Shown here: piece by piece, positions 44,542 to 63,775 of the stretch
How the letters are laid out: each line of letters opens with the position of its first letter
Numbering within the stretch: position 1 is the first letter of the stretch
Origin: Aquilaria yunnanensis
Lineage: Eukaryota; Streptophyta; Magnoliopsida; Malvales; Thymelaeaceae
Length of the DNA stretch: 64,000 bases
Assembly: GCA_039654915.1 (NCBI GenBank)
Contig: CM077600.1
Location: forward strand, 36,812,492-36,876,491
Direction of reading: 5' to 3'
The notes under the pieces: generated by a model
What the model was told of the DNA's origin: nothing
The model's database searches: none
The model's input: the letters and a program-made list of their open reading frames with translations, nothing else
Program-made: the position numbers and the translations under genes

Positions 44542-45314
44542 TGTGGCAACGTCGGGTTTTCTGGAGTCGCCACCAATCCGTTTACCTAGGTCGATTGGTC
44601 ACCTTAAAATTGGTCTGCGAGAGTTCGGGGATCGGGAGTACGGTTACGCTAAAACAATATTGTTATAGCGCCCAAAATTAGCACCTTAGTTGATTTTAAT
44701 TTTTGTTTTACTTTGCTTTTAAATAATTTTCAGTTAATGTAGAAATTTTAACTGAATTAGTCGAAATGTGGATTTTTAAGTTAATTTGTATAGAATTTTA
44801 TACTTCCGAACCATGGACTCTGCCGAGTCATTTGGACACGGAAGATTTGATTCCGAACCATGGACTCTGCCGAGTCACCCGGACACGGAATTTGACGAAA
44901 TTTTAAAGAATTTAATCCATATCGTTAATATGGATTTTTTTTCTTTTTATTTAATTTATTTTAAAAAGGTTGATATTTTCCAAACCGTAGATCCTGCCGG
45001 ATCATCCGGATATGGAAATTATTTTAATTTATTGTTAGTTATATAATTATTAATGGCCCACATAGACCGAAATTTTCAAAAATGTGATTTTTATTTTTAA
45101 TATGTCAAATTAATTTTTTAGATTAATTATTAAAAAGTCTATCTAATCTAATTATATAATTATACTTAATATTAATTCCTAAACTGATAGATGGCTTTAA
45201 TGAACTGAACAAACATAAAAGAAAATAAGTAAAATCAGTTATCGAAATATACAAAGCAGAAAATTTTCATGGCAAACGAACGATTTAGTAATTATTTAGG
45301 CTATAAATGACCAA

Positions 45315-45379
<65 letters not shown>

Positions 45380-47334
45380 TTTAGGGCCTAATTTATCACA
45401 AAGATAATCTAGAGGATCCATTTTTGTCATTAATCCAAAAGTTAGGTAAATACCATCTCAAGTCATCTTCTTCGATTTGTTCTCTGTGGCCTTCAACCAG
45501 AAAAGCACCCTTTTTAATTCAAACAAATATCATGCTGATTTCAATCCAAAATCAAGGTTATATACAATCTCATGTGCGGATTTTAATAAGACTAACAATA
45601 TCCAATGAGGAGAGCACAAAAAATTAAACCAGGAAAATAGACAGATGCTGCCACTTTCTCCTCAATCCTGTAATTTTATTAAACCCACGTAGAATGAATT
45701 CTCGAAAATTAATTTTGAAACACATCGTATAGATTCAATCAAAATTACAAAGATTTTAAGATAAAAAAAAATAAAAATAAAAACAAAAATAAAAAACAAA
45801 AATAAAAAAAAATAAAAAAAAATAGATATCCTAACTTGTATTCCTATGTGAATTTATTAATTAAATTGATGCATGGCCAAATCATCAAATGAACAAAGAA
45901 CAAAAAGAGAAAGAAAAAAAAAAAAAAGTATTGTCAGTGACTGATTTATAGGATAAAATGAAATTAATTGCTTAACTGGATAAAATAAAAATAACTCAAG
46001 GGTAAACAAGAATTATGCCAAAACTATGGACTTTCAAATCAGATCCGAAGCAACAACGAGTCGATTTGCGATCTGGATTTCGTTATTTAATTTTTATTTT
46101 TATTTTTTGTCTGCTTTAAATAATATCAATTAATATCCAAACCATGGATTCTAACCGAACCACCTGAATATGGATTTTGTAATTTATTACCGTCCTAAAT
46201 TCATTTTAAAATTTTATTAAATCCACACGGAATGAATTTTTTTTAGATATGATTTTAGACGCATTGTGAATATTAAATAAAAATAAAATTGAACTATCCA
46301 AAAATTAAAGAGATAAAACAAAATAAAAAAAATTGAGATTATATTCCTATATGGATTTTATGGCTAAATTTAATGAATGGCCAAAATAAACAGATAAACA
46401 AAAGAAATTAAAGAAAAGAAAACAACAAAATAATAAAAGCTTGCTGTTAATGCTCAAACTGCAAAAAAAAAAAAATAAAGTTAGTGACTTAGACGGATAA
46501 AATAAAAATAACTAAGGGCTAAATAAGAATTTTACCAAAAAATGAATTTGACTCGGTCAAAAAAAAATGAAGAAAACGCGTCTGACGAGTTTCCTTTATC
46601 TTTCCTTCTTCGTCTTCTTCCTTCAGGCACAACGATGCACGGACGGGAAGCTGGAGACGACACGGTGGCTGGCGGAAGCATGAGGCGACGCAGGCGGAAG
46701 CAGGAGGCGACGCAGTGATGGGAGGCCGGAGGAGCACGGAGCGCGAGCGTGGTATGGCAGAGCACGAGGCGTGGGCGCGGTGGTGGAGGGACGGCAGCGT
46801 CACGATGACGTCGAGGCTATGGACGGCGGGGGTAAGAGGTTACGGTGCTGCTTGACGGAGCAGGGCCGAGAGAACGGCAGCAGAGGAGCGCAGAGGGGAG
46901 GGGAGGAGCGAGAAGAGGGAGAGACAGAGAGATGAAGGTAAGAGCTCGGAGATCAGAAGCATGTGTGTGTGAGCCCAGATGAGGGAGAAGCGATGTGATC
47001 GTGAGAGTAGGAAGATGAGAGAGCGAAGCTGAAGAGAGAGATAGCGAAGGTCAGAGGGAGAGGAGAGTGAGAGAATTGTTTTTAGAGAGAGTCAGAGATC
47101 AGAAGGAGAGGAAGATGAGAAGGAGCTCTGTTGTGAGCTCCCCCCCCCCCCCCCCCCTCCCCCGGAGAGAGCTCTGATTGTTGGATAAGTAGAAAGAAAA
47201 GAAGAAGCGAGAAGGCTCCGGAGAAAGACAAAGAGGGGAGAAGTCTCTGGAGAGGGCCAGATTTTTATCTTTTTTTTTTTTAATAATAATAAATAATAAT
47301 TAATAGATAATTTAACTTTTTAATACACACACAG

Positions 47335-47365
<31 letters not shown>

Positions 47366-47415
47366 AAATAAAAATGTACCCCATAAATTTTTTTTATTTA
47401 AAAGTTTTTTATTTT

Positions 47416-47458
<43 letters not shown>

Positions 47459-47523
47459 TTATTTTTTTTCTAATTAATTTTTTTAAAATTTTTTTAGTGG
47501 CCGGACGAAATTGGGTGTCAACA
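44542..47523 (-). repeat. 3' LTR of the 19.2-kb element
   Basis: It matches 60782-63775 with roughly a dozen substitutions by eye, plus length changes in the (ATA)n, (AT)n and C-rich runs. It includes a short duplication (CCGAACCATGGACTCTGCCG twice, 44806-44870). Open frames inside it also occur in the other LTR and are not thought to be genes. Confidence 0.95.
45309..45376. repeat. (AAT)n microsatellite in the left LTR
   Basis: About 22 AAT triplets; the matching run in the other LTR (61557-61610) is shorter and interrupted. Confidence 0.9.
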
Positions 47524-47536
47524 GCTGCCCCCCTTT
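47524..47536 (-). other. Polypurine tract of the 19.2-kb element
   Basis: On the minus strand AAAGGGGGGCAGC directly precedes the TGTTGACACCC start of the 3' LTR, the expected site for second-strand priming. Confidence 0.8.
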
Positions 47537-47760
47537 GCATGCTTCATGGGACATGATGTATGCAAAGTCGTTACCAAATTTCGTCCGGCTTAGCTAGGCA
47601 TTGAGAATCTTCTCGTCGCCTAAACCATGAGCTTAAGGAATCTTCCTTAGAATCTTTACGATAGGAATCTTCCAACCGTTGAAGGAAAATTGATGATTTT
47701 GAGGTTAAGGGTCCTACCTTAGAACCTCGACGATAGGAACTCTCCTATCGTTTGAAGTTT

Positions 47761-50700
47761 AAGGAAAGGTCCTTAGAACCTCTAACGATAGGAAAGGTTC
47801 TATCGTTGTAAGATGAACTGAATGATTGATTGTTTGTTTGAAGTTAAGGAAAGGTCCTTAGAACCTCTAACGATAGGAAAGGTTCTATCGTTGTAAGATG
47901 GACTGAATGATTGATTGTTTGTTTGAGGTTTAAGGAAAGGTCCTTAGAACCTCTAACGATAGGAAAGGTTCTATCGTTGTAAGATGGACTGAATGATTGA
48001 TTGTTTGTTTGAGGTTTAAGGAAAGGTCCTTAGAACCTCTAACGATAGGAAAGGTTCTATCGTTGTAAGATGGACTGAATGATTGATTGTTTGTTTGACG
48101 TTAAGGAAAAGTCCTTAGAACCTCTAACGATATGAAAGGTTCTATCGTTGTAAGATGGACTGAATGATTGATTGTTTGTTTGAGGTTTAAGGAAAGGTCC
48201 TTAGAACCTCTAACGATAGGAAAGGTTCTATCGTTGTAAGATGGACTGAATGATTGATTGTTTGTTTGAGGTTTAAGGAAAGGTCCTTAGAACCTCTAAC
48301 GATCGGAAATGTTCTATCGTTGTAAGATGGACTGAATGATTGATTGTTTGTTTGAGGTTTAAGGAAAGGTCCTTAGAACCTCTAACGATAGGAAAGGTTC
48401 TATCGTTGTAAGATGGACTGAATGATTGATTGTTTGTTTGAGGTTTAAGGAAAGGTCCTTAGAACCTCTAACGATAGGAAAGGTTCTATCGTTGTAAGAT
48501 GGACTGAATGATTGATTGTTTGTTTGAGGCTAAGGAAAGGTCCTTAGAACCTCTAACGATAGGAAAGGTTCTATCGTTGTAAGATGGACTGAATGATTGA
48601 TTGTTTGTTTGTTTGAGGTTAAGGAAAGGTCCTTAGAACCTCTAACGATAGGAAAGGTTCTATCGTTGTAAGATGGACTGAATGATTGATTGTTTGTTTG
48701 AGGTTTAAGGAAAGGTCCTTAGAACCTCTAACGATAGGAAATGTTCTATCGTTGTAAGATGGACTGAATGATTGATTGTTTGTTTGAGGTTTAAGGAAAG
48801 GTCCTTAGAACCTCTAACGATAGGAAAGGTTCTATCGTTGTAAGATGGACTGAATGATTGATTGTTTGTTTGAGGTTTAAGGAAAGGTCCTTAGAACCTC
48901 TAACGATCGGAAATGTTCTATCGTTGTAAGATGGACTGAATGATTGATTGTTTGTTTGAGGTTTAAGGAAAGGTCCTTAGAACCTCTAACGATAGGAAAG
49001 GTTCTATCGTTGTAAGATGGACTGAATGATTGATTGTTTGTTTGAGGTTAAGGAAAGGTCCTTAGAACCTCTAACGATAGGAAAGGTTCTATCGTTGTAA
49101 GATGGACTGAATGATTGATTGTTTGTTTTTTTGAGGTTAAGGAAAGGTCCTTAGAACCTCTAACGATAGGAAAGGTTCTATCGTTGTAAGATGGACTGAA
49201 TGATTGATTGTTTGTTTGAGGTTTAAGGAAAGGTCCTTAGAACCTCTAACGATAGGAAAGGTTCTATCGTTGTAAGATGGACTGAATGATTGATTGTTTG
49301 TTTGAGGTTTAAGGAAAGGTCCTTAGAACCTCTAACGATAGGAAAGGTTCTATCGTTGTAAGATGGACTGAATGATTGATTGTTTGTTTGAGGTTTAAAG
49401 AAAGGTCCTTAAAACCTCTAACGATAGGAAATGTTCTATCGTTGTAAGATGGACTGAATGATTGATTGTTTGTTTGAGGTTTAAGGAAAGGTCCTTAGAA
49501 CCTCTAACGATAGGAAAGGTTCTATCGTTGTAAGATGGACTGAATGATTGATTGTTTGTTTGAGGTTTAAGGAAAGGTCCTTAGAACCTCTAACGATAGG
49601 AAAGGTTCTATCGTTGTAAGATGGACTGAATGATTGATTGTTTGTTTGAGGTTTAAGGAAAGGTCCTTAGAACCTCTAACGATAGGAAAAGTTCTATCGT
49701 TGTAAGATGGACTGAATAATTGATTGTTTGTTTGAGGTTTAAGGAAAGGTCCTTAGAACCTCTAACGATAGGAAAGGTTCTATCGTTGTAAGATGGACTG
49801 AATGATTGATTGTTTGTTTGAGGTTTAAGGAAAGGTCCTTAGAACCTCTAACGATATGAAAGGTTCTATCGTTGTAAGATGGACTGAATGATTGATTGTT
49901 TGTTTGAGGTTTAAGGAAAGGTCCTTAGAACCTCTAACGATAGGAAAGGTTCTATCGTTGTAAGATGGACTAAATGATTGATTGTTTGTTTGAGGTTTAA
50001 GGAAAGGTCCTTAGAACCTCTAACGATAGGAAAGGTTCTATCGTTGTAAGATGGACTGAATGATTGATTGTTTGTTTGAGGTTTAAGGAAAGGTCCTTAG
50101 AACCTCTAACGATAGGAAAGGTTCTATCGTTGTAAGATGGACTGAATGATTGATTGTTTGTTTGAAGTTAAGGAAAGGTCCTTAGAACCTCTAACGATAG
50201 GAAAGGTTCTATCGTTGTAAGATGGACTAAATGATTGATTGTTTGTTTGAGGTTTAAGGAAAGGTCCTTAGAACCTCTAACGATAGGAAAGGTTCTATCG
50301 TTGTAAGATGGACTGAATGATTGATTGTTTGTTTAAGGTTTAAGGAAAGGTCCTTAGAACCTCTAACGATAGGAAAGGTTCTATCGTTGTAAGATGGACT
50401 GAATGATTGATTGTTTGTTTAAGGTTTAAGGAAAGGTCCTTAGAACCTCTAACGATAGGAAAGGTTCTATCGTTGTAAGATGGACTGAATGATTGATTGT
50501 TTGTTTGAGGTTAAGGAAAGGTCCTTAGAACCTCTAACGATAGGAAAGGTTCTATCGTTGTAAGATGGACTGAATGATTGATTGTTTGTTTGAGGTTTAA
50601 GGAAAGGTCCTTAGAACCTCTAACGATAGGAAAGGTTCTATCGTTGTAAGATGGACTGAATGATTGATTGTTTGTTTGTTTGAGGTTAAGGAAAGGTCCT

Positions 50701-51449
50701 TAGAACCTCTAACGATAGGAAAGGTTCTATCGTTGTAAGATGGACTGAATGATTGATTGTTTGTTTGAGGTTTAAGGAAAGGTCCTTAGAACCTCTAACG
50801 ATAGGAAATGTTCTATCGTTGTAAGATGGACTGAATGATTAATTGTTTGTTTGAGGTTTAAGGAAAGGTCCTTAGAACCTCTAACGATAGGAAAGGTTCT
50901 ATCGTTGTAAGATGGACTGAATGATTGATTGTTTGTTTGAGGTTTAAGGAAAGGTCCTTAGAACCTCTAACGATAGGAAAGGTTATATCGTTGTAAGATG
51001 GACTGAATGATTGATTGTTTGTTTGAGGTTTAAGGAAAGGTCCTTAGAACCTCTAACGATAGGAAAGGTTCTATCGTTGTAAGATGGACTGAATGATTGA
51101 TTGTTTGTTTGAGGTTTAAGGAAAGGTCCTTAGAACCTCTAACGATAGGAAAGGTTCTATCGTTGTAAGATGGACTGAATGATTGATTGTTTGTTTGAGG
51201 TTTAAGGAAAGGTCCTTAGAACCTCTAACGATATGAAAGGTTCTATCGTTGTAAGATGGACTGAATGATTGATTGTTTGTTTGAGGTTTAAGGAAAGGTC
51301 CTTAGAACCTCTAACGATAGGAAAGGTTTTATCGTTGTAAGATGGACTGAATGATTGATTGTTTGTTTAAGGTTTAAGGAAAGGTCCTTAGAACCTCTAA
51401 CGATAGGAAAGGTTCTATCGTTGTAAGATGGACTGAATGATTGATTGAT
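47761..51449. repeat. 86-bp tandem array, ~43 copies
   Basis: The unit starts AAGGAAAGGTCCTTAGAACC and repeats every 86 bases (for example 47941 to 48027). More diverged half-units precede it at 47588-47760. Each unit contains AACGATAG-GAAAGGTT-CTATCGTT, an 8-base perfect stem with an 8-base loop, and a second short AAGG...CCTT palindrome. Units are nearly identical, with a few variants (GATCGG, TATGAAA). It occupies the 3' untranslated part of the element, a place where Tat/Ogre elements are known to carry tandem repeats. Confidence 0.96.
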
Positions 51450-52160
51450 TTCGAGGCAAATGTTCCATCCTTAAAACCTTGAATTGATTGATTGATCTCG
51501 AGGCAAAGATTTCATCCTTAAAACCTCAGATTGATTGATTGATGTCGAGGCAAAGGTTCCATCCTTAAAACCTCAGATTGATTGGTTGATTTCGAGGCAA
51601 AGGTTCCATCGTTAAAACCTCAGATTGATTGATTGATGTCGAGGCAAAGGTTCCATCCTTAAAACCTCGGATTGATTGATTGATGTCGAGGTAAAGGTTC
51701 CATCCTTAAAACCTCGAATTGATTGATTGATCTCGAGGCAAAGGTTCCATCCTTAAAACCTCGGATTGATTGATTGATTTCGAGGCAAAGGTTCCATCCT
51801 TAAAACCTCGGATTGATTGATTGATGTCGAGGTAAAGGTTCCATCCTTAAAACCTCGAATTGATTGATTGATGTCGAGGTAAAGGTTCCATCCTTAAAAC
51901 CTCGAATTGATTGATTGATCTCGAGGCAAAGGTTCCATCCTTAAAACCCCGATGATGAAAATTGATTGTTTTCGAGGCAAAGGTTCCATCCTTAAAACCT
52001 CGGATTGATTGATTGATGTCGAGGTAAAGGTTCCATCCTTAAAACCTCGAATTGATTGATTGATCTCGAGGCAAAGGTTCCATCCTTAAAACCTCGGATT
52101 GATTGATTGATTTCGAGGCAAAGGTTCCATCCTTAAAACCCCGATGATGAAAATTGATTT
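51450..52160. repeat. 47-bp tandem array, ~15 copies
   Basis: The unit is TCGAGGCAAAGGTTCCATCC then TTAAAACCTCGGATTGATTGATTGA. TCGAGG...CCTCGA can pair within each unit. It directly adjoins the 86-bp array, and both contain GATTGATTG, so the two may share an origin. Confidence 0.93.
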
Positions 52161-52705
52161 TGAGGCTAAGGAGCTTTCCTTAGGAACTCGAGCGAAATTT
52201 ATATGAAAGAAATTGAAATTGGAATAATTTTTTTTGAAAGTGTGAATTTTCATAATAGGCGAGCGCAAAGAATTAGGCTTCGATAAAACGAGTGAATCTT
52301 GATGATGACAATAACACTGACAAATTATGTAAAGGGAACGGATGTTTGGAATCAATATTTAAGGTTCATCTAATATTTTCTTCAGTAAATATAGATTCCC
52401 TTGTGAGATATGTCATCCGAATAAGGTTAAAGCTTAACTACCCCAAAATGTTATGCCTAGTAGACCTAATAGGATGCGTCTCAAGAGTAACAAAAATTAC
52501 TCTTTACTCAGCCATTCCAACCTAAAGGCATTGTCCTATGGTTTTAATATCAGCATGGACGAAACTATATTATAAAAAAAGAAATTCCCTGAAAAGAAAA
52601 ACTGAAACGCGAAAGAAAATGCTGATAATAAAACTAAAGGACAAAAAAAACGGATTAGATCGCTTCTTTCTTCCACAATACTTCAACAGGGTGAGTAGAG
52701 GACCA
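52161..52705. other. Spacer between the tandem arrays and LOG
   Basis: This is the 3' flank of the LOG gene in the element sense. No convincing gene; the overlapping short frames on both strands are unremarkable. Confidence 0.35.
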
Positions 52706-53350
52706 TTATGGGAGTGAACTGGTCGGGAAAGACTGTCGTGTCCAGTCTATCTGAATCATTGCTGGATCTGGTTCAGGAACAAAAGCTTGTATTTTATCTA
52801 CCAATTCTTCAGCAGTTGTTGCGGATATTATGATTCGTCGTGCCATTCTTGATATGAAATTCTTCTGCATAGCATAATCCATAAAAGCTATCAGACCTGT
52901 AAAGAAATTGTTAACATTTAAAAGCCCAATGGGTTTCTTATGCAAATTAAGTTGGGCCATGGAAGCAATTTGAAAGACTTCTCCCAATGTGCCAAAACCA
53001 CCTGGTAGAGCGATAAAAGCATCAGCATTTAAAAGCATTTGTAACACACGCTCTTGCAAATTTTTAACCACTAATTCTTCTCCAATCGTGCCCCCAGAAA
53101 TAAATTTCAGAGGTCCAGGGATAATGCCCAGAACTTGACTTCCTCCTAGAGATGCTGCTGATGCTACACCTCCCATTAATCCGACACTACCTCCTCCATA
53201 AACTAAATGTATTTTTCGCTCAGCTAATACTCTACCCAAATGGTTGGCTGCTTTTAAATACTCTTCATCTTTTCCAGGAAAAGCCCCAGAAAATACACAA
53301 ATACTTCGGGATTTACGAGTTGGGGTTTTCTCCATTCCTATCCTTACCAT
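52706..53350 (-). CDS. Intronless LOG-type cytokinin riboside 5'-monophosphate phosphoribohydrolase, retrotransposon cargo
   Basis: LOG enzymes release active cytokinin bases from their nucleotides in one step. The frame from ATG 53350 gives 214 residues, close to plant LOGs. Motifs are YGGGSVGLMGGVA (51-63), LPGGFGTLGEVFQ (115-127, the PGGxGTxxE signature) and IGLLNV (141-146). The usual Met-x-x-Arg-Lys site reads LQERV (98-102): the Arg is kept, the Lys is not. Plant LOG genes have several introns and this has none, which points to capture from spliced RNA. A TATA box (53368-53375) lies only 18 bases before this ATG, so the ATG at 53335 (209 residues, MEKTPTRKS) may be the real start. It is the last gene in the sense orientation of the retroelement. 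Activity is unproven. Confidence 0.88.
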   Translation of the reverse strand: MVRIGMEKTPTRKSRSICVFSGAFPGKDEEYLKAANHLGRVLAERKIHLVYGGGSVGLMGGVASAASLGGSQVLGIIPGPLKFISGGTIGEELVVKNLQERVLQMLLNADAFIALPGGFGTLGEVFQIASMAQLNLHKKPIGLLNVNNFFTGLIAFMDYAMQKNFISRMARRIIISATTAEELVDKIQAFVPEPDPAMIQIDWTRQSFPTSSLP

Positions 53351-53367
53351 TGTGAGAAAAGAGGATA

Positions 53368-53375
53368 TATTTATA
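53368..53375 (-). promoter_or_regulatory. TATA box before LOG
   Basis: TATAAATA in CTCTATAAATATATCC on the minus strand. The usual 25-35 base spacing would place transcription start near 53340, downstream of the first ATG. Confidence 0.6.
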
Positions 53376-53399
53376 GAGATGAAGAGATAAGGCAATAAT

Positions 53400-53890
53400 T
53401 TTATTTTCAAGAATGGATACATTATTGCCAGCTATTCACAGTAGTCACAAGTATGACTTTGGTCAGGTATGGGTACATTATCGTTAAAAGAGGAGGAAAA
53501 TTTTCAAAATAGTTGCTAGCATGTACAGTAGTCACTACTGTAGCTTATGTCAGGAGTAGGTATGTGATTGTTGGAAGAGAAGGAAAATTTTAAAAAGTGG
53601 CAGCTATATACAGTAATCATAACTGTATTTCATGTCAGGAGTGGGTACATTATTGGGAGGATAATTTCAAAAGCGACAGCTAGCATGTACAGTAATCGTG
53701 ACTTTGGTTCACGTCAGGAGTGAATACATTATTACCAAAAGGGGAGGAAAATTTCAAAAGCGACAGCTAGCATGTACAGTAATCGTGACTTTGGTTCACG
53801 TCAGGAGTGGATACATTATTACCAAAAGGGGAGGAAAATTTCAAAAGCGACAGCTAGCATGTACAGTAATCGTGACTTTGATCCTCGTCT
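53400..53890. repeat. ~87-bp repeat, ~5 copies, between LOG and the first virus-like gene
   Basis: GACAGCTAGCATGTACAGTA recurs at 53675, 53762 and 53849, 87 bases apart. Two older, more diverged copies lie towards LOG. Single related segments occur at 54585-54665 and 55405-55500, between the virus-like gene copies, so the unit belongs to the duplicated gene module. Confidence 0.9.
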
Positions 53891-53928
53891 TCCACTGGCT
53901 TTGCGTCCAGTAATGGCTTCAATGCTTT

Positions 53929-54477
53929 CTATGAATCGGTGATTTGCATCTCATCTAGCTTTCTCACAAACTGGCAAACAGGGTCGTTTAGGGTCAGATT
54001 CCCAAGACTGTAACGATCTCGTTCTTTTTGGAAAATTATCCATAATCCAACAACCTCAAATTGCACTATTCCGCAAGAATGCGCTTCAAGAACCTCTCGA
54101 ATATCTTCTAGAGATTCCTTACGCAAGCCATTCTTAATGAATCTTATTCTATCATTACGATTTCTGGTGATCACTCCTGGAGAACGACATTTATTGCCGC
54201 AAATCCACCATCCACAATTATGACAAACGCCTAGCCTCTTTGCTCTTCTTTTTTTGGCATAAGCGCTTTTACCAAAGCCGGGCATACGGGGAAAGAACGC
54301 TTCTGGAACTTCACCAGCTGAACGAACCTTAACTTCGATTAGCCACCGCACATTATCAGGAATGCCTTTGTGCATAAATACTCTGAATCGTTCACATCTA
54401 GCTTGATAAATCTTTTTAAGAACATTTATTGGGAAGGAAGGAAAATACTTTCGTAGGGCGGAAAGAGAAGACTCCAT
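53929..54477 (-). CDS. Virus-like cysteine-rich nucleic-acid-binding protein, copy 1 (open)
   Basis: 182 residues with no stop. The centre has a basic arm (AKKRRAKR, 74-81) followed by a compact Cys cluster, C85-x2-C88-x4-C93-x3-C97, then RSPG. The pattern of a (G)(K/R)S-x-YA-basic stretch next to a Cys cluster and Pro-Gly is that of plant-virus cysteine-rich nucleic-acid-binding proteins (carlavirus and related groups), some of which suppress RNA silencing. This match is from motif recognition only; a modified retroviral-type zinc knuckle is the alternative, but the spacing and lack of His differ. The N-terminal 60 residues and C-terminal 80 are not recognised. It has its own TATA box (54544-54551) 67 bases upstream and lies in element sense. 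Confidence 0.75.
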   Translation of the reverse strand: MESSLSALRKYFPSFPINVLKKIYQARCERFRVFMHKGIPDNVRWLIEVKVRSAGEVPEAFFPRMPGFGKSAYAKKRRAKRLGVCHNCGWWICGNKCRSPGVITRNRNDRIRFIKNGLRKESLEDIREVLEAHSCGIVQFEVVGLWIIFQKERDRYSLGNLTLNDPVCQFVRKLDEMQITDS

Positions 54478-54543
54478 TGATGAAGGAGGTATTTAAGAGA
54501 AGAAAGAAATTAATGATTGTAGGAAACGAAAATAACTAACACA

Positions 54544-54551
54544 TATTTATA
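54544..54551 (-). promoter_or_regulatory. TATA box before virus-like gene copy 1
   Basis: TATAAATA in CTATAAATATG on the minus strand, 67 bases before the ATG at 54477. Confidence 0.6.
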
Positions 54552-54701
54552 GTTATGAAAGGGATAATGCGTTAATTACACTTACAGAAGCAAGTACATT
54601 ATTGTCAAAAGAGAAGACAAATGACAGCTTATATGTACAGGAATCATGACCGTGGCTCTCATCTTCCACTGATTCATGTCCAGTAATGGCTTCAATGCTT
54701 T

Positions 54702-55250
54702 CTATAAGTCGGGGATTTGCTTCCCATCCAGTTTTCTTACAAACTGACAAACAGGGTCGTTTAAAGTCACATTCCCAAGACTGTAACGGTTTCGTTCTTT
54801 ATGGTAAGTCATCCATAAACCGATAATTTCACCTTGCACTTTTCCACAAGAATGCGTTTCAAGAGTCTCTCGGATATCTTCCAGAGATTCCTTACGCAGG
54901 CCATTCTTAATGAATTTTCTTTTATCTTCACGATTTATGGAGATGTATCCTAAAGAGCGACATTTAGTAATACAATTCCATCGCCCACATTTATAACACA
55001 CGCCTAGTCTCTTTGCTCTTCGCCTTTTGGCATAACGGCTTTTACCTAAACCGGGCATGCGGGGCATAAATGCATCTGGAACTTCACCCGCCAGACGGAC
55101 CTTAGCTTCAATTATCCACTGCACATTATCGGGAATGCCTTTGCGTGTAAAAACTCTGATTCTTTCACATCTAGCAAGGTAGATCTTTTTAAGGACTTTT
55201 ATTGGAAGGGAAGGAAAGTATTTTCACAGTGCAGAAAGAGTAGAATCCAT
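54702..55250 (-). pseudogene. Virus-like cysteine-rich protein gene, copy 2 (stop at codon 9)
   Basis: Same 549-base length as copies 1 and 3, with no indel. A TGA at codon 9 (55224-55226) interrupts it. The rest of the frame is open, including the basic arm and Cys cluster (RRAKRLGVCYKCGRWNC). An internal ATG at 55124 could begin a shorter product that keeps the Cys cluster. A TATA box lies at 55370-55377. The divergence from copy 1 shows the duplication predates the recent insertion of the whole element. Confidence 0.78.
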
Positions 55251-55369
55251 TGATGAGAGAAGAATTTGAGAGAAGAGGGAAATGAATCAGTTATTGTAGA
55301 AGACTGGAATAACCGAATTTAGAAGTCACGGGGTATCTTATCCGCTGCTTAATCAGAAGGAAGAACACG

Positions 55370-55377
55370 TATTTATA
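55370..55377 (-). promoter_or_regulatory. TATA box before virus-like gene copy 2
   Basis: TATAAATA in CTATAAATACG on the minus strand, 120 bases before the ATG at 55250. Confidence 0.55.
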
Positions 55378-55539
55378 GTGATGAAAAGGGATAACGTGTC
55401 GATTACACTTAGGGGAGCATGTACATCTGTCAAAAGAAAATGCAAACTTTTCCAAATATAACAAACTGTATGTACAGTAATTGTGACTGTGGCTCACATC
55501 TTCCACTGGCTTTACGTCTAGTAACGGCATTAACGGCTT

Positions 55540-56088
55540 CTATGAGTCGAGGATTTGCTTCCCATCCAGTTTTCTTACAAGCTGGCAAACAGGGTTATTT
55601 ACAGTCAGATTCCCGGGACTGTAACGGTTTCGTTCTTCATGAAAAATGCTCCATAAACCAAGAAGTTCACGTTGCACAGATCCACAAGAATGTGTTTCAA
55701 GAGTCTCTCGGATATCTTCCAATGAGTCCTTACTCAGGCTATTCTTGATGAATCGTATTTTATCTTCTCGATTATCGGAGATCATTCATAAAGAACGACA
55801 TTTAGTATTACAAGTCCACCGTCCACATTTGTGGCAGACTTGTAACCTTTTCGCTCTTCGCTTTTTGGCATAAGAGCTTTTGCCTATACCAGGCATGTGA
55901 GACACAAATGCCTCTGGGATTTCACCCGCCAGACGAACCTTGGCTTCGATTAACCACCGCACATCTTCAGGGATTCCTTTGTGCATCAGAACTCTTAATC
56001 GTTCACAGCGAACTTGGTAGATCTTTTTTAGAATGTTCATTGGGAGAGAAGGAAAATATTTTCGTAAGACAGAAAGAGTAGGATCCAT
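55540..56088 (-). pseudogene. Virus-like cysteine-rich protein gene, copy 3 (stop at codon 101)
   Basis: 549 bases, in line with the other copies. A TGA at codon 101 (55786-55788), just after the Cys cluster (CHKCGRWTCNTKCRSL), splits it into an N-terminal part that keeps the basic arm and cluster and a C-terminal part that is open to the normal end. A possible TATA (ATATAAAAAAT, minus strand near 56240-56250) lies about 155 bases upstream. The 5' leader resembles that of copy 2 (GCGGATA...CCGTGAC). Confidence 0.78.
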
Positions 56089-57399
56089 TTTCTAGAGGGA
56101 AGTAAAAGAAAGAAGAGAGGAAAGAATCAGTTATTATGGGCAACTGAGAGAACCGACTTGAGAGTCACGGAGTACTGTATCCGCCGTTTAACCGGAAAAG
56201 TGGATCCTACTTTATTTTGATGTCATAGATATTTCTTATTTTTTATATCCCATCGGGCTGACGTTGATCCAGTCCTTGATTATTGAATCTATTGGCAGCT
56301 TTTGCCAAATTGTCAACGACAATATTTCATGATGTATACCTTATCCTTGACTATGGCTATCTCTTATCTTGGATACCATTATGCTGACGTCAATGCTGTC
56401 CCTCCAGGTGTAGCAGCTTTTGCCAAATTGTCTACCTTATCGTTAAATTCCTGACGCGGCTTGGTCCAGCGTATTAGCTGTACATCCAGTGATAGGCTGG
56501 TAAGAGCTGATGTCATTGAGATGTCAGCTTATACTATGCCGTGGATGTGATCCCACCTGATCCCTATTATGTAAAAGCCATGTATACATGATGTGAAATG
56601 CATGAATGTAATGCATGCGTAACTGATGGTATTCTTTTATTTTGGATCTAGTTTTTCATGTCTTTGCTTTATTGGATCCCCTTTGTAATTGCCTTCTTGG
56701 ACTATCATTAAATCCCTTTATGCTTCCCAGCTTTTGTCCATTGCCTCAAAAGCCCAACTCTTTTCAAAATCCTTTTTTTTTTTTGACTTGTTCTTGAATT
56801 TTGGCCTCAATTTCTTTAAAGTTGGCCCACCTCATAATTTATATCTCTTTCGGGTACTCATCCATTGTCATGGATTTGATACCATCAAAGGCTTTACTTT
56901 CAATGTCTGTTTTGCCCCTTTTCTTGTGACCGTGCCGACACTTACTTATCCTCATGTTATAATCTGAATGATTGCTCTTCTTATGTTTTGATGCATAAGA
57001 CTTGCCCCCTTGTCTATTGAACTTCTTTGTTGGCAGTACTCCTCTTACGCTTTGTAGAGACTACTTTGCCCTCCTGAATATGGTATTTATGTGGAGAAAA
57101 GGTATCATATCGCCTTTGATTTAACAGAAGGTCGAGCATTTCTAGACCTTTGTGATGACACTTGATCGTAAATTTCTCTTACAAGAACCACATCTTATTA
57201 AAGAAAGACTCAAGCTATCTCCTCACTTTTAAGTCTACATACATTAATGAATAATGGTTTGGCCTTAAAGAAAAACTTTCATCAATTTGCAAAGCTTGAC
57301 AAAGTAATTTACGGTCTTTGTTTTTAATTAAAATATCCTGCCATTCTTCCCTTTTCCAACTCGAAGACATAAACTGTGCAAGGCAATAAGGTAGAAACA
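56089..57399. other. Element interior upstream of the virus-like genes
   Basis: It holds the promoter side of copy 3, then non-coding DNA. GCTTTTGCCAAATTGTC occurs twice (about 56298 and 56408). No gene recognised. Confidence 0.35.
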
Positions 57400-58105
57400 T
57401 GATTCACAATAATAGCCTTTTAACTGAATGAGGATGATATCGAGAGGTAAATGTTAGGTGTGAGGAAAGTTAAGTTTGAATGTTTTTTTTTTTGTGGCAG
57501 TCTTTTAGCTGAATGAGAATAATATTAAGAGGTAAATATTAGGTCTGAGTAAAGTTAAGTTTGAGTGGTGTGAAAGAAGGGTCTTTTAATACTACTCGTG
57601 AGCAGTATTAAATAAGGTAGAAATATGTTTCACAATGATAGTCTTTTGACTGAATGAGGATGTTAGGTCTGAGGAAAGTTAAATTTAAGTGGTGTGAAAG
57701 AATGGTCTTTTAATACTACTCGTGAGCAGTATTAAATAAGGTAGAAACATGATTCACAATGATAGTCTTTTAGCTGAATGAGGATGATAAGTCTGAGAAA
57801 AGTTAAGTTTAAGTGGTGTGAAAGAATGGTCTTTTAATACTACTCGTGAGCAGCATTAAATAAGGTAGAAACATGTTTCACAATGATAGTCTTTTAGCTG
57901 AATGAGGATGATAAGTCTGAGGAAAGTTAAGTTTAAGTGGTTTGAAAGAAGGGTCTTTTAATACTACTCGTGAGCAGCATTAAATAAGGTAGAAACATGT
58001 TTCACAATGATAGTCTTTTAGCTGAATGAGGATGATAAGTCTGAGGAAAGTTAAGTTTAAGTGGTTTGAAAGAAGGGTCTTTTAATACTACTCGTGAGCA
58101 AATTT
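57400..58105. repeat. ~124-bp tandem repeat, ~5-6 copies
   Basis: TTTTAATACTACTCGTGAGC recurs near 57585, 57708, 57831, 57956 and 58080, spacing 123-126. The first unit is diverged. Confidence 0.9.
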
Positions 58106-58254
58106 GATTATGGTGAAAAACTCAATAGTGATGACCTCAATTTGCCACTCTTTCCAGAAAGTTAGACCTCATCTATTGCCCCCCAACTATTGTGATCTTT
58201 ATGCATGCTTGGTTTGAGGGTTGCTTTTGTGTTCTAAACCGCCTTTGCAGGTTT

Positions 58255-58700
58255 TCAGTCTAGAATCCATAGCTCACTTTTTTTGTTTTCTTTCTTTTGC
58301 TCTAGTTTGGGCCCTTTTTCCTTTTTTTTTTTTTGTTTTTTTTTGTTTCCCCCTTGTTTTTTTTTTTTGTAAGCTATGGTGATGACATACTTGATAACTC
58401 TCTTGAAGTGAGATGACTCAAGTGGCCTTGCTTGCTCGTGCTTGTTCTCAGTCCTTTTTGGTTTTGAATTTTCCCTTGTTGTCTTTTTTATGGAAGGGAT
58501 GAATTTCTCTTTTCGGAGATTGTGTTGCAAAGAACTGAGGTCATAGCCCTCTTAAAATGAGATGATTCAAGTGGCCTTACTTGCTTGTGTTTGCTCTCAG
58601 TCTCTTTTTTTTTTGTTTTGGATTTTCCCTTTTAATGGCTTTTGATGAAAGGGATGAACTTCTTTCCTTTGTTGGAATTTGTGTTGTGGAAAACTGATAA
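58255..58700. repeat. Two ~150-bp direct repeats with T-rich low-complexity DNA
   Basis: TCAAGTGGCCTTGCTTGCTC (58417) and TCAAGTGGCCTTACTTGCTT (58567) mark two copies that share TTTTCCCTT and GAAAGGGATGAA-type blocks. The Lys-rich frame on the minus strand arises from the T-runs and is not a gene. Confidence 0.75.
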
Positions 58701-58949
58701 TCTTTTTTTTTGTATTGAGCATTTGTGAGAATTGGGAGGCCACTGAAGTCATTTAATATGAGAGCTACCTTGTTTGGAAGCTAACCCCAGACTTCTTGCA
58801 AGGATGTTGATAACCACTATGAATTCTTCTTTTAAGAGTTGGGGTGCAACATATGAAATCCTTCTTACTAGATTTGACAGCACTTTCAAGATCGCCACTA
58901 TTAAATCTCCCTTAACTTTTTATTTTCACCCACGAGTAGTATCGTTTTC

Positions 58950-59290
58950 AAAGTAAAGTGTGATAGCAATAATGGATAGTATAATGGCAAAGAGTGAGAG
59001 GTGGATATAAAAACGGAATTTTTGGTAAGAAGTGGTAGAATGTGTAGGTGTAATAATTGAATTTTTGGTAAAAATTGGTAGAATGTGTAGATGTAATAAT
59101 GGAATTAAAAAGTGGTAGAATGCACACATAACATCTTTTTGTTGGAGAACAAAAAGAATTACCAGTTGTCGAAAAGTAAAGTGTGATGGCAATAATGGAT
59201 AGTATAATAGCAAAGAGTGTAAAAATGGAAAGTAGTAGAATGCACGCATTACATCTTTTTGTTGTACCAGAAAAAGAATAGCAGGTGTCC
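58950..59290. repeat. Short nested direct repeats
   Basis: TAAAGTGTGATRGCAATAATGGATAGTATAATRGCAAAGAGTG-like segments occur at 58955 and 59177; AGTGGTAGAATG-type segments recur between them. Confidence 0.75.
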
Positions 59291-59610
59291 ATTTAACAAA
59301 GACTACACCCTAGATTCTGGACTAAATCTAGGAGATTTTTACTATTAAATTACTTTTGCAAGCTTTCAAAGATACAAGTTTATTCAAAGGATTCCCTGTC
59401 ATTCAAAAGTGTGTGCGGACTGTTAGGTCAGATCTGACTTGGAGCCCTTCCAAGATTAATGTAATTCCAGCTCAAAATCTTCACTTTCAATTACCAATCA
59501 CATCATGGCCTAGCAACTTAGACTCGACCAACTGTTGGACCTTGAGTTTCAGCACCACAGACTTTTCAGTTACATTTGGGATTTGGGTCATACCAACTTG
59601 GAAGAGAAGG

Positions 59611-59793
59611 TCACTTGGCCTTTGCTACTATTGATATAGATGATAGCAGAATGCCTTCTTCAGCAAAGACTGTGATTAACTTTCCTTCAAAAATGAATTT
59701 CATTTTTTGGTGTAATAAGGAGGGAATTACTCCAGCCATATTTTCTATCTTGGACTCTATATCTATGAGACGTCCTTCAGTTTGTTCTGCCAT
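59611..59793 (-). other. Possible gag N-terminal remnant
   Basis: A 60-codon frame in element sense begins MAEQTEGRLIDIESKIENMA, a polar, coiled-coil-like start of the kind seen in some plant Ty3/gypsy gag proteins. It stops early and no capsid or zinc knuckle follows. Weak assignment. Confidence 0.25.
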
Positions 59794-59860
59794 TAGTCTT
59801 GTTTGGAGCCGAGTTGGATATTGGTGTTGAGATCCAATTTTACTTTTTTTTTTTTTTTAA

Positions 59861-60060
59861 AGTGAGATTCATTTTATTAGATTTTACATGTATATGATTG
59901 ATGCAATGGATGCATGCAATACATAATGAGATTATGTTTTTTATCAAAATTTATATGCACGTGATTGATGTAATGGATGCATGCAATATAAAGTGAGATT
60001 ATGTTTTTATCAGACTTTATATGCACGTGATTAATGTAATGCATGCATGCGATGAGTGAG
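59861..60060. repeat. ~66-bp tandem repeat, 3 copies
   Basis: GATTGATGYAATGGATGCATGCAAT-like units with AGTGAGATTATGTTTTTATC linkers, three times in a row, the last diverged. Confidence 0.85.
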
Positions 60061-60759
60061 TTTGCTTATCCATTATCGTGGAACTTCAAAACTTTTAGTT
60101 GTCATTATAAAGACAAAAAAGTTAGCATAATTTGATGCGTGGTTTTGATGCATGAAGAATAATTGCACAAGAAAGATAAGGTTATTAATAAGTTAAATAC
60201 CAATTAACAACTCATGAAGTATTATGGATAAACAAGTTAAAACCATACGAAGAAAAGTGTAGAGTAACAACACAGCATAACAAGGATATGCTTATGGTGT
60301 TGGTAAAATGGTAGAAATTCTATGGTCAGTTCTATGGTTAAGTGGGGAGTTCTATATGCATAAGGTGGCTTATCAAAAAGGCAAGGGATAGTTCCCGAAT
60401 CCCGTCACTAAATTATAGTGACAGCCCGATTCCTTACCCTCTAGGGTTTATGTAAGGAATGGATTAATTCGAGTCGTAGCTTTTCGTGGGCCCATGCAGA
60501 GACTAACCGTCTCAGGAGGCAATACACTACTTTGCTACTTTGAAACCGGTGAAGGCTTGGAAACCATGGCCTCACAAGGACAACAACACCAATTCCGCTT
60601 AGAAAGAACGTGTTCGATTTGAGGAAGTTCGGGTATAGAGTTTCATGTCGTGAATGCATTATGCATGTTTACTTAAGTAAATATAACACAAGAATCCACA
60701 AAAAAGTAAGCAAAGCAAAACAAAACAAATCAATATTTTAGGCTCGACTCACTAACCGT
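60061..60759 (-). other. 5' leader of the 19.2-kb element
   Basis: Non-coding sequence between the primer-binding site and the inner repeats. The short minus-strand frame at 60441-60659 has no recognised feature. Confidence 0.4.
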
Positions 60760-60778
60760 GTCCCCAGTGGAGTCGCCA
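60760..60778 (-). other. Primer-binding site of the 19.2-kb element
   Basis: On the minus strand TGGCGACTCCACTGGGGAC begins three bases inside the 5' LTR. Its complement resembles the 3' end of a plant tRNA-Arg including CCA, the primer I recall for Tat/Ogre elements. This fixes the element orientation. Confidence 0.75.
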
Positions 60779-60781
60779 AGC

Positions 60782-61554
60782 TGTGGCAACGTCGGGTTTT
60801 CTGGAGTCGCCACCAATCCGTTTACCTAGGTCGATTGGTCACCTTAAAATTGGTCTGCGAGAGTTCGGGGATCGGGAGTACGGTTACGCTAAAACAATAT
60901 TGTTATAGCGCCCAAAATTAGCACCTTAGTTGATTTTAATTTTTGTTTTACTTTGCTTTTAAATAATTTTCAGTTAATGTAGAAATTTTAACTGAATTAG
61001 TCGAAATGTGGATTTTTAAGTTAATTTGTATAGAATTTTATACTTCCGAACCATGGACTCTGCCGAGTCATTTGGACACGGAAGATTTGATTCCGAACCA
61101 TGGACTCTGCCGAGTCACCCGGACACGGAATTTGACGAAATTTTAAAGAATTTAATCCATATCGTTAATATGGATTTTTTTTCTTTTTATTTAATTTATT
61201 TTAAAAAGGTTGATATTTTCCAAACCGTAGATCCTGCCGGATCATCCGGATATGGAAATTATTTTAATTTATTGTTAGTTATATAATTATTAATGGCCCA
61301 CATAGACCGAAATTTTCAAAAATGTGATTTTTATTTTTAATATGTCAAATTAATTTTTTAGATTAATTATTAAAAAGTCTATCTAATCTAATTATATAAT
61401 TATACTTAATATTAATTCCTAAACTGATAGATGGCTTTAATGAACTGAACAAACATAAAAGAAAATAAGTAAAATCAGTTATCGAAATATACAAAGCAGA
61501 AAATTTTCATGGCAAACGAACGATTTAGTAATTATTTAGGCTATAAATGACCAA

Positions 61555-61607
<53 letters not shown>

Positions 61608-63544
61608 TAATAAAAATTTAGGGCCTAATTTATCACAAAGATAATCTAGAGGATCCATTTTTGTCATTAATCCAAAAGTTAGGTAAATACCATCTCAAGT
61701 CATCTTCTTCGATTTGTTCTCTGTGGCCTTCAACCAGAAAAGCACCCTTTTTAATTCAAACAAATATCATGCTGATTTCAATCCAAAATCAAGGTTATAT
61801 ACAATCTCATGTGCGGATTTTAATAAGACTAACAATATCCAATGAGGAGAGCACAAAAAATTAAACCAGGAAAATAGACAGATGCTGCCACTTTCTCCTC
61901 AATCCTGTAATTTTATTAAACCCACGTAGAATGAATTCTCGAAAATTAATTTTGAAACACATCGTATAGATTCAATCAAAATTACAAAGATTTTAAGATA
62001 AAAAAAAATAAAAATAAAAACAAAAATAAAAAACAAAAATAAAAAAAAATAAAAAAAAATAGATATCCTAACTTGTATTCCTATGTGAATTTATTAATTA
62101 AATTGATGCATGGCCAAATCATCAAATGAACAAAGAACAAAAAGAGAAAGAAAAAAAAAAAAGTATTGTCAGTGACTGATTTATAGGATAAAATGAAATT
62201 AATTGCTTAACTGGATAAAATAAAAATAACTCAAGGGTAAACAAGAATTATGCCAAAACTATGGACTTTCAAATCAGATCCGAAGCAACAACGAGTCGAT
62301 TTGCGATCTGGATTTCGTTATTTAATTTTAATTTTTATTTTTTGTCTGCTTTAAATAATATCAATTAATATCCAAACCATGGATTCTAACCGAACCACCT
62401 GAATATGGATTTTGTAATTTATTACCGTCCTAAATTCATTTTAAAATTTTATTAAATCCACACGGAATGAATTTTTTTTAGATATGATTTTAGACGCATT
62501 GTGAATATTAAATAAAAATAAAATTGAACTATCCAAAAATTAAAGAGATAAAACAAAATAAAAAAAATCGAGATTATATTCCTATATGGATTTTATGGCT
62601 AAATTTAATGAATGGCCAAAATAAACAGATAAACAAAAGAAATTAAAGAAAAGAAAACAACAAAATAATAAAAGCTTGCTGTTAATGCTCAAACTGCAAA
62701 AAAAAAAAATAAAGTTAGTGACTTAGACGGATAAAATAAAAATAACTAAGGGCTAAATAAGAATTTTACCAAAAAATGAATTTGACTCGGTCAAAAAAAA
62801 ATGAAGAAAACGCGTCTGACGAGTTTCCTTTATCTTTCCTTCTTCGTCTTCTTCCTTCAGGCACAACGATGCACGGACGGGAAGCTGGAGACGACACGGT
62901 GGCTGGCGGAAGCATGAGGCGACGCAGGCGGAAGCAGGAGGCGACGCAGTGATGGGAGGCCGGAGGAGCACGGAGCGCGAGCGTGGTATGGCAGAGCACG
63001 AGGCGTGGGCGCGGTGGTGGAGGGACGGCAGCGTCACGATGACGTCGAGGCTATGGACGGCGGGGGTAAGAGGTTACGGTGCTGCTTGACGGAGCAGGGC
63101 CGAGAGAACGGCAGCAGAGGAGCGCAGAGGGGAGGGGAGGAGCGAGAAGAGGGAGAGACAGAGAGATGAAGGTAAGAGCTCGGAGATCAAAAGCATGTGT
63201 GTGTGAGCCCAGATGAGGGAGAAGCGATGTGATCGTGAGAGTAGGAAGATGAGAGAGCGAAGCTGAAGAGAGAGATAGCGAAGGTCAGAGGGAGAGGAGA
63301 GTGAGAGAATTGTTTTTAGAGAGAGTCAGAGATGAGAAGGAGAGGAAGATGAGAAGGAGCTCTGTTGTGAGCTCCCCGAGAGCTCTGCTTGTTGGATAAG
63401 TAGAAAGAAAAGAAGAAGTGAGAAGGCTCTGGAGAAAGACAAAGAGGGGAGAAGTCTCTGGAGAGAGGGCCAGATTTTTCTCTTTTTTTTTTTAATAATA
63501 ATAAATAATAATTAATAGATAATTTAACTTTTTAATACACACAC

Positions 63545-63627
<83 letters not shown>

Positions 63628-63677
63628 AAATAAAAATGTACCCCATAAATTTTTTTTATTTAAAAGTTTTTTATTTT

Positions 63678-63711
<34 letters not shown>

Positions 63712-63775
63712 TTATTTTTTTTCCATTAATTTTTTTAAAATTTTTTTAATGGCCGGACGAAATTGGGTGTCAACA
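60782..63775 (-). repeat. 5' LTR of the 19.2-kb element
   Basis: On the minus strand it starts TGTTGACACCCAATTTCGTC and ends GTTGCCACA. It matches 44542-47523 over its full length and has a much longer (AT)n run (63547-63624). Confidence 0.95.
63547..63624. repeat. (AT)n microsatellite in the right LTR
   Basis: About 39 AT dinucleotides; the matching run in the other LTR (47335-47361) is far shorter. Confidence 0.92.

What the first reader, a model, noticed from the sequence alone, without database searches (positions are those of the whole stretch)
44542..63775. Retrotransposon derivative without gag-pol that carries a LOG gene and three virus-like zinc-protein genes
LTRs, a 5-bp target duplication, primer site and polypurine tract are all visible, yet the interior has no replication genes. 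It carries, in sense orientation, genes of two unrelated kinds: a cytokinin-activating enzyme and a protein resembling plant-virus silencing suppressors. I know of no described plant retroelement with this pair. A mobile element that could dampen silencing and promote cell division would gain in meristem cells; that role is inference.
Basis: partly seen in the sequence, partly recalled or inferred. Interest (0 to 1): 0.96.

Follow-up and report, generated by a model that had tools for sequence, protein, structure and literature searches.

The report
Ogre-type jumping gene carrying hormone enzyme
A plant jumping gene that has lost its own copying genes carries a gene for a LOG-type (cytokinin-activating family) enzyme and three copies, two of them broken, of a gene resembling plant-virus silencing suppressors; each of the 15 copies of the family examined in this genome has such a gene set, which is likely to help the element spread by altering its host cell.

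Summary
The window contains a recent LTR retrotransposon (LTRs 44542-47523 and 60782-63775, 11 mismatches in 2942 compared positions, TSD CTTGC), in sense on the minus strand. It carries an intact LOG gene, an intact NABP1, and NABP2 and NABP3 with one internal stop each.

It is not a one-off. The same 842-Mb genome holds at least 150 near-identical LOG copies. I examined 14 others: all 14 have 1-4 NABP genes directly upstream of LOG. One, on contig C8, has every domain of an autonomous element (DUF7745/PMD ORF1, gag, G-patch, RT, two RNase H domains, integrase) plus four NABP genes and LOG, which places the family with Tat/Ogre. The window copy is a deletion derivative: gag codon 38 is fused to the region just after the protease, a junction shared by two other copies. 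LOG is under strong purifying selection, even between gag-pol-less copies.

LOG domains in Gypsy elements (Citrus, Populus) were already reported. My searches listed no report of NABP in LTR elements or of the pair. Cytokinin activation and silencing suppression remain predictions. Verdict: a real new variant of a known kind, with unusually strong evidence that a plant retrotransposon's accessory genes are functional.

The parts
44537..44541 (.). target-site duplication, left copy (CTTGC)
44542..47523 (-). LTR (3' LTR in element sense), 2982 bp
47524..47536 (-). polypurine tract AAAGGGGGGCAGC next to the 3' LTR
   Evidence: same motif at the 3' LTR of the gag-pol-bearing sibling
47750..51447 (.). 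tandem array, 86-bp unit x 43
51438..52140 (.). tandem array, 47-bp unit x 15
52706..53422 (-). LOG gene, single open frame of 238 aa; family alignment and TATA position favour the start at 53335
53369..53376 (-). TATA-like CTATAAAT, 41 nt before the LOG start at 53335; same place in 10 of 10 other copies scanned
   Evidence: window position read from the sequence
53929..54477 (-). NABP1, intact, 182 aa, CX2CX4CX3C and KKRRAKR
54545..54552 (-). TATA-like CTATAAAT upstream of NABP1
54702..55250 (-). NABP2, interrupted by a stop at codon 9
55371..55378 (-). TATA-like CTATAAAT upstream of NABP2
55540..56088 (-). NABP3, interrupted by a stop at codon 101
57543..58100 (.). tandem array, 124-bp unit x 4.5
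59614..59856 (-). deletion remnant: gag residues up to 38 fused to residues 892-920 (just after the protease region) of the gag-pro frame
60761..60778 (-). primer-binding site TGGCGACTCCACTGGGGA
   Evidence: same at L058:4636
60782..63775 (-). LTR (5' LTR in element sense), 2994 bp
63776..63780 (.). target-site duplication, right copy (CTTGC)

Best explanation
This is a recently inserted, gag-pol-deleted copy of a high-copy Tat/Ogre-type LTR retrotransposon family that carries, between pol and the 3' LTR and in sense, an accessory cassette of NABP-like zinc-finger genes plus a LOG gene, predicted to make the host cell more permissive by activating cytokinin and by binding nucleic acid in the nucleus to counter silencing. 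SHOWN: element anatomy; a sibling with gag-pol and the same cassette; a deletion junction shared by three copies; related upstream sequence and a CTATAAAT box before LOG, NABP1 and NABP2; protein-level constraint on LOG and NABP. INFERRED: the window copy moves by using gag-pol proteins of siblings; the cassette genes are transcribed from their own internal promoters; LOG frees active cytokinin and so favours dividing, germline-producing cells; NABP works like carlavirus cysteine-rich proteins, as nuclear activator and/or silencing suppressor.
For: Anatomy. Copy number: 150 LOG copies scored of 4044 first-look candidates, 149 without internal stops. Conserved cassette: 14 of 14 other copies examined have NABP genes directly 5' of LOG (three in 11, four in 2, one in 1). 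Gag-pol-bearing sibling on C8: DUF7745 5.4e-56, PMD 1.1e-8 and gag 2e-11, G-patch 4.1e-10, RVT_1 2.1e-26, RT_RNaseH, RVT_3, integrase, LTRs with 6 mismatches over 3981 aligned columns. Deletion remnant and junction shared with L044 and L048. Selection: LOG of the gag-pol-less window and L048 copies, 21 synonymous to 3 nonsynonymous changes; L046-L048, 21 to 0 (binomial p 5e-11 and 6e-14); NABP1-3 of the window dN/dS 0.20-0.31. Related upstream sequence (LOG-N1, LOG-N2, N1-N2 and N2-N3, 0 of 500 shuffles reach the score); CTATAAAT conserved. Viral CRP precedent: PMC7588395 (abstract and opening text), PMC12172455 (abstract and one section).
Against: No expression, enzyme or silencing assay was available. 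Copies were found by LOG similarity, so LOG presence, intactness and low dN are partly selected for (though picking best matches should not turn a neutral expectation of about 68 nonsynonymous changes into 0). NABP-virus similarity is limited to about 60 residues at E 1e-6 to 1e-8; the AlphaFold model is weak (pLDDT 65.7) and no Foldseek hit passed E 0.001. LOG-N3 and N1-N3 upstream similarity is not significant (33 and 22 of 500 shuffles), the significant LOG stretches lie well upstream of its TATA box, and NABP3 has no CTATAAAT in 10 of 10 copies. Window-L048 N3 gives dN/dS 0.56. The protease match is below the Pfam cut-off in L040 and was not found in L058. The C-terminal LxLxL tail of most related LOGs is missing here. 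At 1250-3000 nt the contig-length coincidences are not clearly above chance (3 against 1.3). LOG fails the stricter cytokinin equivalog cut-off.
Confidence: 0.6

Rival explanations
1. The cassette proteins act, but not as proposed: LOG-like and NABP-like proteins work within the element's own cycle (for example nucleotide salvage for cDNA synthesis, RNA chaperoning or transcriptional control of the element) rather than on host hormone or silencing.
For: Strong protein-level constraint says only that the proteins matter. The NCBIfam cytokinin equivalog cut-off is not met (98.5 of 300 bits). Most related LOGs end in a basic stretch plus LxLxL (99 of 120), a repression-type motif by recall, odd for a purely cytosolic enzyme. 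NABP homologues have CX2CX4CX3C in 112 of 143 and a basic run in 118 of 143.
Against: PGGxGTxxE is kept in 108 of 120 related LOGs, and Arg125 and Glu148 (window numbering) are invariant in the 22 aligned, which points to a working LOG active site.
Confidence: 0.25
2. The cassette is passive cargo, carried because its DNA or RNA is needed in cis (packaging, length, tandem-repeat seeding) or because masters happened to hold it.
For: NABP2 and NABP3 are broken in the window copy, and 8 of 42 NABP frames in the other 14 copies are not intact. NABP number varies from 1 to 4.
Against: LOG 21:0 and 21:3 synonymous:nonsynonymous changes between subfamilies. At least one intact NABP in 15 of 15 copies and an intact LOG in 14 of 15. 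Pol is gone from 14 of these 15 while the cassette stays.
Confidence: 0.1
3. Later nested insertion: LOG and NABP entered this one copy after it inserted.
For: None found.
Against: NABP followed by LOG, with related flanking sequence, in all 14 other copies examined, on eight contigs, and in the copy with gag-pol.
Confidence: 0.01
4. The cassette is a domesticated host gene cluster merely flanked by LTRs of a chimeric insertion.
For: TATA-like boxes before the genes.
Against: TSD, PBS, PPT and 99.6% identical LTRs; at least 150 dispersed copies; the window LOG groups with multi-copy LOGs and apart from Arabidopsis LOG3 and LOG8.
Confidence: 0.02

Closest known systems
Ogre (Tat lineage) Ty3/gypsy LTR retrotransposons
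   Same: In the gag-pol-bearing sibling: second RNase H between RH and integrase, PMD-type 5' ORF, gag-pro and pol frames separated; in both: long LTRs, long pol-3'LTR region with tandem repeats (criteria from passages of PMC6317226, and PMC9289625)
   Different: Extra sense ORFs are a LOG gene and an NABP array; the survey's extra-ORF cut-off of 250 codons would miss both
LOG (YgdH) domain in Citrus and Populus Gypsy elements (PMC9289625 section 12, citing Steinbauerova et al. 2011)
   Same: A LOG-family domain inside Gypsy LTR elements
   Different: No NABP, cassette structure, selection test or deletion derivatives are described in the section read; the cited 2011 paper is not held
Carlavirus/mandarivirus cysteine-rich NABPs (p12 of chrysanthemum virus B, CRP of citrus yellow vein clearing virus)
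   Same: Zinc-finger plus basic region; Pfam Viral_NABP and Carla_C4 above cut-off
   Different: About 182 aa with conserved N- and C-terminal regions outside the match; carried by plant DNA elements, here tandemly duplicated; no suppressor activity shown
Retand elements with antisense TRP28 ORFs (PMC11963269)
   Different: Those ORFs are antisense and TRP28; these are sense, LOG and NABP. That paper reports no known domains in sense ORFs of the region (passage)
Orchid Gypsy elements with an m6A demethylase (PMC9289625)
   Same: A Tat-like element with a captured enzyme whose domain also occurs in plant RNA viruses
   Different: Different gene; activity shown there, not here

Membership tests
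Ogre (Tat) LTR retrotransposon | Additional RNase H between RH and integrase | tested here: met
   L052 pol: RVT_1 165-324, RT_RNaseH 416-517, RVT_3 582-692, H2C2 782-839, rve 858-955; criterion (shared by Ogre and Retand). Tested on the sibling; the window copy has no pol.
Ogre (Tat) LTR retrotransposon | Plant-mobile-domain extra ORF (57% of Ogre elements per PMC6317226) | tested here: met
   L058 ORF1: DUF7745 5.4e-56, PMD 1.1e-8, 35.1 bits against cut-off 34.9. Tested on the sibling; not found in the window copy.
Ogre (Tat) LTR retrotransposon | tRNA-Arg primer-binding site | not tested
   PBS TGGCGACTCCACTGGGGA seen; that it matches tRNA-Arg is recalled
Ogre (Tat) LTR retrotransposon | RT-RH-INT phylogenetic placement | not tested
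   no reference set of polyproteins at hand
LOG (cytokinin riboside 5'-monophosphate phosphoribohydrolase) | Family profile and PGGxGTxxE motif | tested here: met
   TIGR00730 150.2 bits over cut-off 96.35; PGGFGTLGE present
LOG (cytokinin riboside 5'-monophosphate phosphoribohydrolase) | NCBIfam equivalog CtkRMPhLog cut-off | tested here: not met
   98.5 bits against cut-off 300; so family member, cytokinin specificity not certified
LOG (cytokinin riboside 5'-monophosphate phosphoribohydrolase) | Enzyme activity on cytokinin nucleotides | not testable with these tools
   needs assay
Viral NABP / carlavirus cysteine-rich protein | Pfam Viral_NABP or Carla_C4 above cut-off | tested here: met
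   94 and 93 of 106 members (window NABP1 plus 105 of the 143 homologues) match at E 0.01
Viral NABP / carlavirus cysteine-rich protein | Fold similarity to viral NABPs | tested here: inconclusive
   pLDDT 65.7; best E 0.048; of the 25 best BFVD hits 22 are named and all 22 are plant-virus proteins, 20 of them called silencing suppressor or nucleic-acid/RNA-binding; PDB gave one hit at E 5.9
Viral NABP / carlavirus cysteine-rich protein | RNA silencing suppression | not testable with these tools
   needs assay
Non-autonomous LTR derivative (LARD-like) | Intact LTR, PBS and PPT without gag-pol, with propagated copies | tested here: met
   same junction in 3 of 15 elements

The most novel reading that the evidence does not exclude
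A eudicot-wide lineage of Ogre retrotransposons carries a host-manipulation cassette, a cytokinin-activating LOG enzyme plus an array of virus-type zinc-finger silencing suppressors with their own promoters, that works like the accessory genes of a tumour-inducing virus: it drives cell division and disarms silencing to raise germline transposition, and it is kept by selection even after gag-pol is lost, so that non-autonomous copies are cheaters for replication proteins but cooperators for host control.
Probability: 0.3. Interest if true: 0.95.

Novelty: new variant of a known kind. Interest (0 to 1): 0.82.

Why it matters
Whether extra ORFs of plant LTR retrotransposons do anything is an open question; PMC6317226 says so explicitly (passage). 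Here two unrelated accessory genes are found together in each of 15 copies examined, in a family with at least 150 LOG copies, and LOG shows 21 synonymous against 0 to 3 nonsynonymous changes between subfamilies, including between copies that have no gag-pol. This makes function directly testable with a small enzyme and a small zinc-finger protein. If the predicted roles hold, a transposon family would be manipulating a plant hormone and RNA silencing the way viruses do, and NABP-like proteins of flexiviruses and of retrotransposons would share an origin.

Tried and rejected
Viral contig scans with NABP1 and with a NABP alignment gave no relatives; with a LOG alignment they gave 29 distant LOG loci at 26-33% identity, not pursued. 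A Pfam scan of ten stop-free pieces (nine between 56.6 and 60.7 kb, one overlapping the end of LOG) found no replication domain; the gag remnant was recognised only after siblings were fetched. A NABP profile search of solved structures gave nothing; Foldseek against PDB gave one meaningless hit. Nested later insertion and host-gene-cluster readings were rejected. The C-terminal LxLxL tail was considered as part of the mechanism but is absent from the 11 LOG copies of this genome whose ends were printed. Species not identified.

A census by NABP or 5' UTR could not be made: the genome search answered once and was busy in all other tries, so the fraction of family copies lacking the cassette is unknown. 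Before the pooled dN/dS the frameshifted L038 N1 and L044 N3 were dropped, L048 has no N1 or N2, the second N2-like copy of L042 and L052 was not used, and the four copies came later and were not included. In the LOG tree P0081 and proteins of 300 aa or more except P0076 were left out.
Full report
OBSERVATION. The window holds a complete LTR retrotransposon on the minus strand. LTRs at 44542-47523 and 60782-63775 match at 2931 of 2942 compared positions (92 gap columns, about half of them one 50-column gap in a microsatellite); both flanks are CTTGC; the interior (13,258 bp) begins with GCT followed by TGGCGACTCCACTGGGGA and ends AAAGGGGGGCAGC. K2P distance is 0.0037, about 0.14 million years at the recalled rate of 1.3e-8. 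Three tandem arrays (86, 47 and 124 bp) fill about 4.9 kb.

GENES. LOG (52706-53422) matches Lysine_decarbox at 1.5e-30 and TIGR00730 at 150 bits over a cut-off of 96, but not the stricter NCBIfam cytokinin equivalog (98.5 of 300 bits). Nearest solved structures by sequence are Arabidopsis At2g37210 and At5g11950. The three NABP frames pass the cut-offs of Viral_NABP and Carla_C4. All three read as 183-codon units; NABP1 is intact, NABP2 has a stop at codon 9, NABP3 at codon 101. Pairwise dN/dS is 0.27, 0.20 and 0.31 (bootstrap upper limits 0.44, 0.32, 0.51), so the units diverged mostly under constraint.

RELATIVES IN OTHER PLANTS. NABP1 has 73 homologues at E 0.001 among 106 candidates, and a profile search reaches 934 among 3741 (120 listed). 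Every listed row with an organism name is a eudicot (Xanthoceras, Orobanche, Parasponia, Populus, Acer, Rhamnella); most rows carry none. LOG: 7400 hits among 7999 scored candidates; of the 120 listed, 38 (my count) are from Reevesia pubescens on many chromosomes, with Populus, Paulownia, Xanthoceras, Parasponia, Diplodiscus and Thalictrum. In a tree of 118 rows the window LOG sits among 113 rows (support 97/95), apart from Arabidopsis LOG3, LOG8 and the Thalictrum row; one Xanthoceras row (P0136) falls on the latter side of the midpoint root. 99 of 120 related LOGs end in LxLxL after a basic stretch, an EAR-type motif by recall; the 11 copies of this genome whose ends were printed lack it. 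NABP and LOG hits share the exact contig lengths 4511 and 8723 among contigs over 3 kb (2 observed among 25 NABP and 15 LOG lengths, mean 0.04 at shifted lengths), which suggests linkage in other plants; among 1250-3000 nt contigs the 3 coincidences are near chance (mean 1.3, maximum 4).

OTHER COPIES IN THE SAME GENOME. The window lies on contig C8 of an 842-Mb assembly. 150 LOG copies (the window's included) were scored out of 4044 candidates; all cover residues 1-238 at 98-100% identity and 149 have no internal stop. I fetched stretches around 14 others, on eight contigs: ten (the first seven rows after the window plus three lower ones) and four (picked from the list by hand). In 14 of 14, NABP genes lie directly upstream of LOG: three in 11, four in L042 and L052, one in L048. 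34 of 42 NABP frames in these copies are intact. Not intact: L038 N1, L044 N3, L054 N3 and N2, L059 N3 (start lost), L061 N3 and N2, L062 N3. Because copies were found by LOG, LOG presence is by construction; NABP presence is not.

SIBLING WITH GAG-POL. On C8 near 6.93-6.95 Mb, L058, L052 and L053 (read as separate pieces) show a 5' LTR, the same PBS, ORF1 with DUF7745/PMD, gag, a G-patch and a 1144-codon pol frame with RT, RNase H, second RNase H and integrase, four intact NABP genes and LOG, PPT and a 3' LTR with 6 mismatches over 3981 aligned columns. The gag-pro-G-patch frame and the pol frame are about 200 nt apart; PMC9289625 (passage) describes a putative intron between gag and pol in Ogre. 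That it is active is not shown; the protease profile did not match L058 and matched L040 only below cut-off (22.1 of 24.3 bits); no clean 5-bp TSD is seen at the assumed LTR ends (GATAA on both sides, offset by one base). Pol was found in 1 of 15 elements (window included); ten others keep 303-716 residues of the gag-pro frame, one (L061) keeps a diverged part, and window, L044 and L048 keep at most 67. The last three share the same junction in the DNA, while their 5' UTRs differ by 4-10%, so this gag-pol-less form has likely been replicating as such, presumably with proteins from siblings.

SELECTION ON LOG. Over 11 copies pooled dS is 0.052 and dN 0.0028. L046-L048 differ by 21 synonymous and 0 nonsynonymous changes, window-L048 by 21 and 3; binomial p 6e-14 and 5e-11. 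The search ranked copies by protein similarity, which lowers dN, but neutral expectation for L046-L048 would be about 68 nonsynonymous changes (my arithmetic from the site counts). Window and L048 both lack gag-pol, so constraint acts in the non-autonomous lineage too, unless the shared junction spread by recombination. NABP, not used for the search, gives pooled 0.21 (N3), 0.43 (N2) and 0.40 (N1); single N3 pairs range from 0.12 to 0.56, the highest being window-L048.

PROMOTERS. Sequence upstream of LOG is related to that of NABP1 and NABP2 (0 of 500 shuffles reach the alignment score) but not significantly to NABP3 (33 of 500); the matching LOG stretch lies in the distal part of the 560 bases taken, not at the TATA box. 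CTATAAAT lies 41 nt before the favoured LOG start in 10 of 10 copies and before N1 and N2 in every one of the ten that has them, but before N3 in none. LOG seems to sit in a slot at the end of a tandem array of NABP units. Transcription was not tested.

MECHANISM. Carlavirus p12 is described as a nuclear transcriptional activator and cytoplasmic silencing suppressor (PMC7588395, abstract and opening text); a mandarivirus CRP suppresses local silencing, and mandarivirus CRPs carry an NLS and a zinc finger, the latter critical for cell death caused by one of them (PMC12172455, abstract and one results section). LOG enzymes free active cytokinin (established knowledge; PMC9289625 section 12 notes their role). 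Both would favour proliferating, weakly silencing cells. Silencing suppression by virus-derived helicase domains in insect retroelements has been proposed (PMC6338049, passages).

PRIOR ART. A LOG-family (YgdH) domain in Citrus and Populus Gypsy consensuses is reported in PMC9289625 (section 12 read), citing Steinbauerova et al. 2011, which I did not see; from memory that paper names LOGL4-like ORFs in two Athila-like elements. Searches, with rows listed of papers found: carlavirus + retrotransposon (13 of 14), Viral_NABP terms (20 of 4432), Ogre + cytokinin (8 of 8), LONELY GUY + retrotransposon and related (7 of 7; 25 of 436), YgdH and related (15 of 31). By title and abstract start, none listed is about NABP genes in LTR elements or about the pair; only open-licence papers are held and two of the lists are heavily capped. 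PMC3136472 and PMC2714080 (passages) deal with other virus-derived sequences. PMC7264820 has none of the six terms.

Noticed in passing
G000 contigs C7, C4 (two), C6, C1: Five same-strand LOG pairs 13.5-15.1 kb apart; L038/L039 show LTR-interior-LTR-interior, i.e. tandem elements sharing an LTR.
   Followed up: partly
proteins: 99 of 120 LOG relatives of the element type end in basic residues plus LxLxL, a repression-type tail by recall; it is absent in the copies of this genome whose ends were printed.
   Followed up: partly
L048 (C6:10391800-10401700): A copy with a single NABP directly before LOG and more diverged sequence; it may represent an ancestral layout or a recombination product.
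   Followed up: partly
window 32027-35263: Broken Copia-type element (RVT_2 1.1e-58, rve, Pol_BBD).
   Followed up: no
window 27728-28505: 157-bp tandem array, five copies, 97% matches.
   Followed up: no
window 19075-20001 and 40250-40681: Frames with Glyco_transf_8 (1e-11) and DUF7912 (1.4e-37) matches, possibly exons of host genes.
   Followed up: no
L001-L029: 29 viral contigs encode distant LOG-family proteins (26-33% identity).
   Followed up: no
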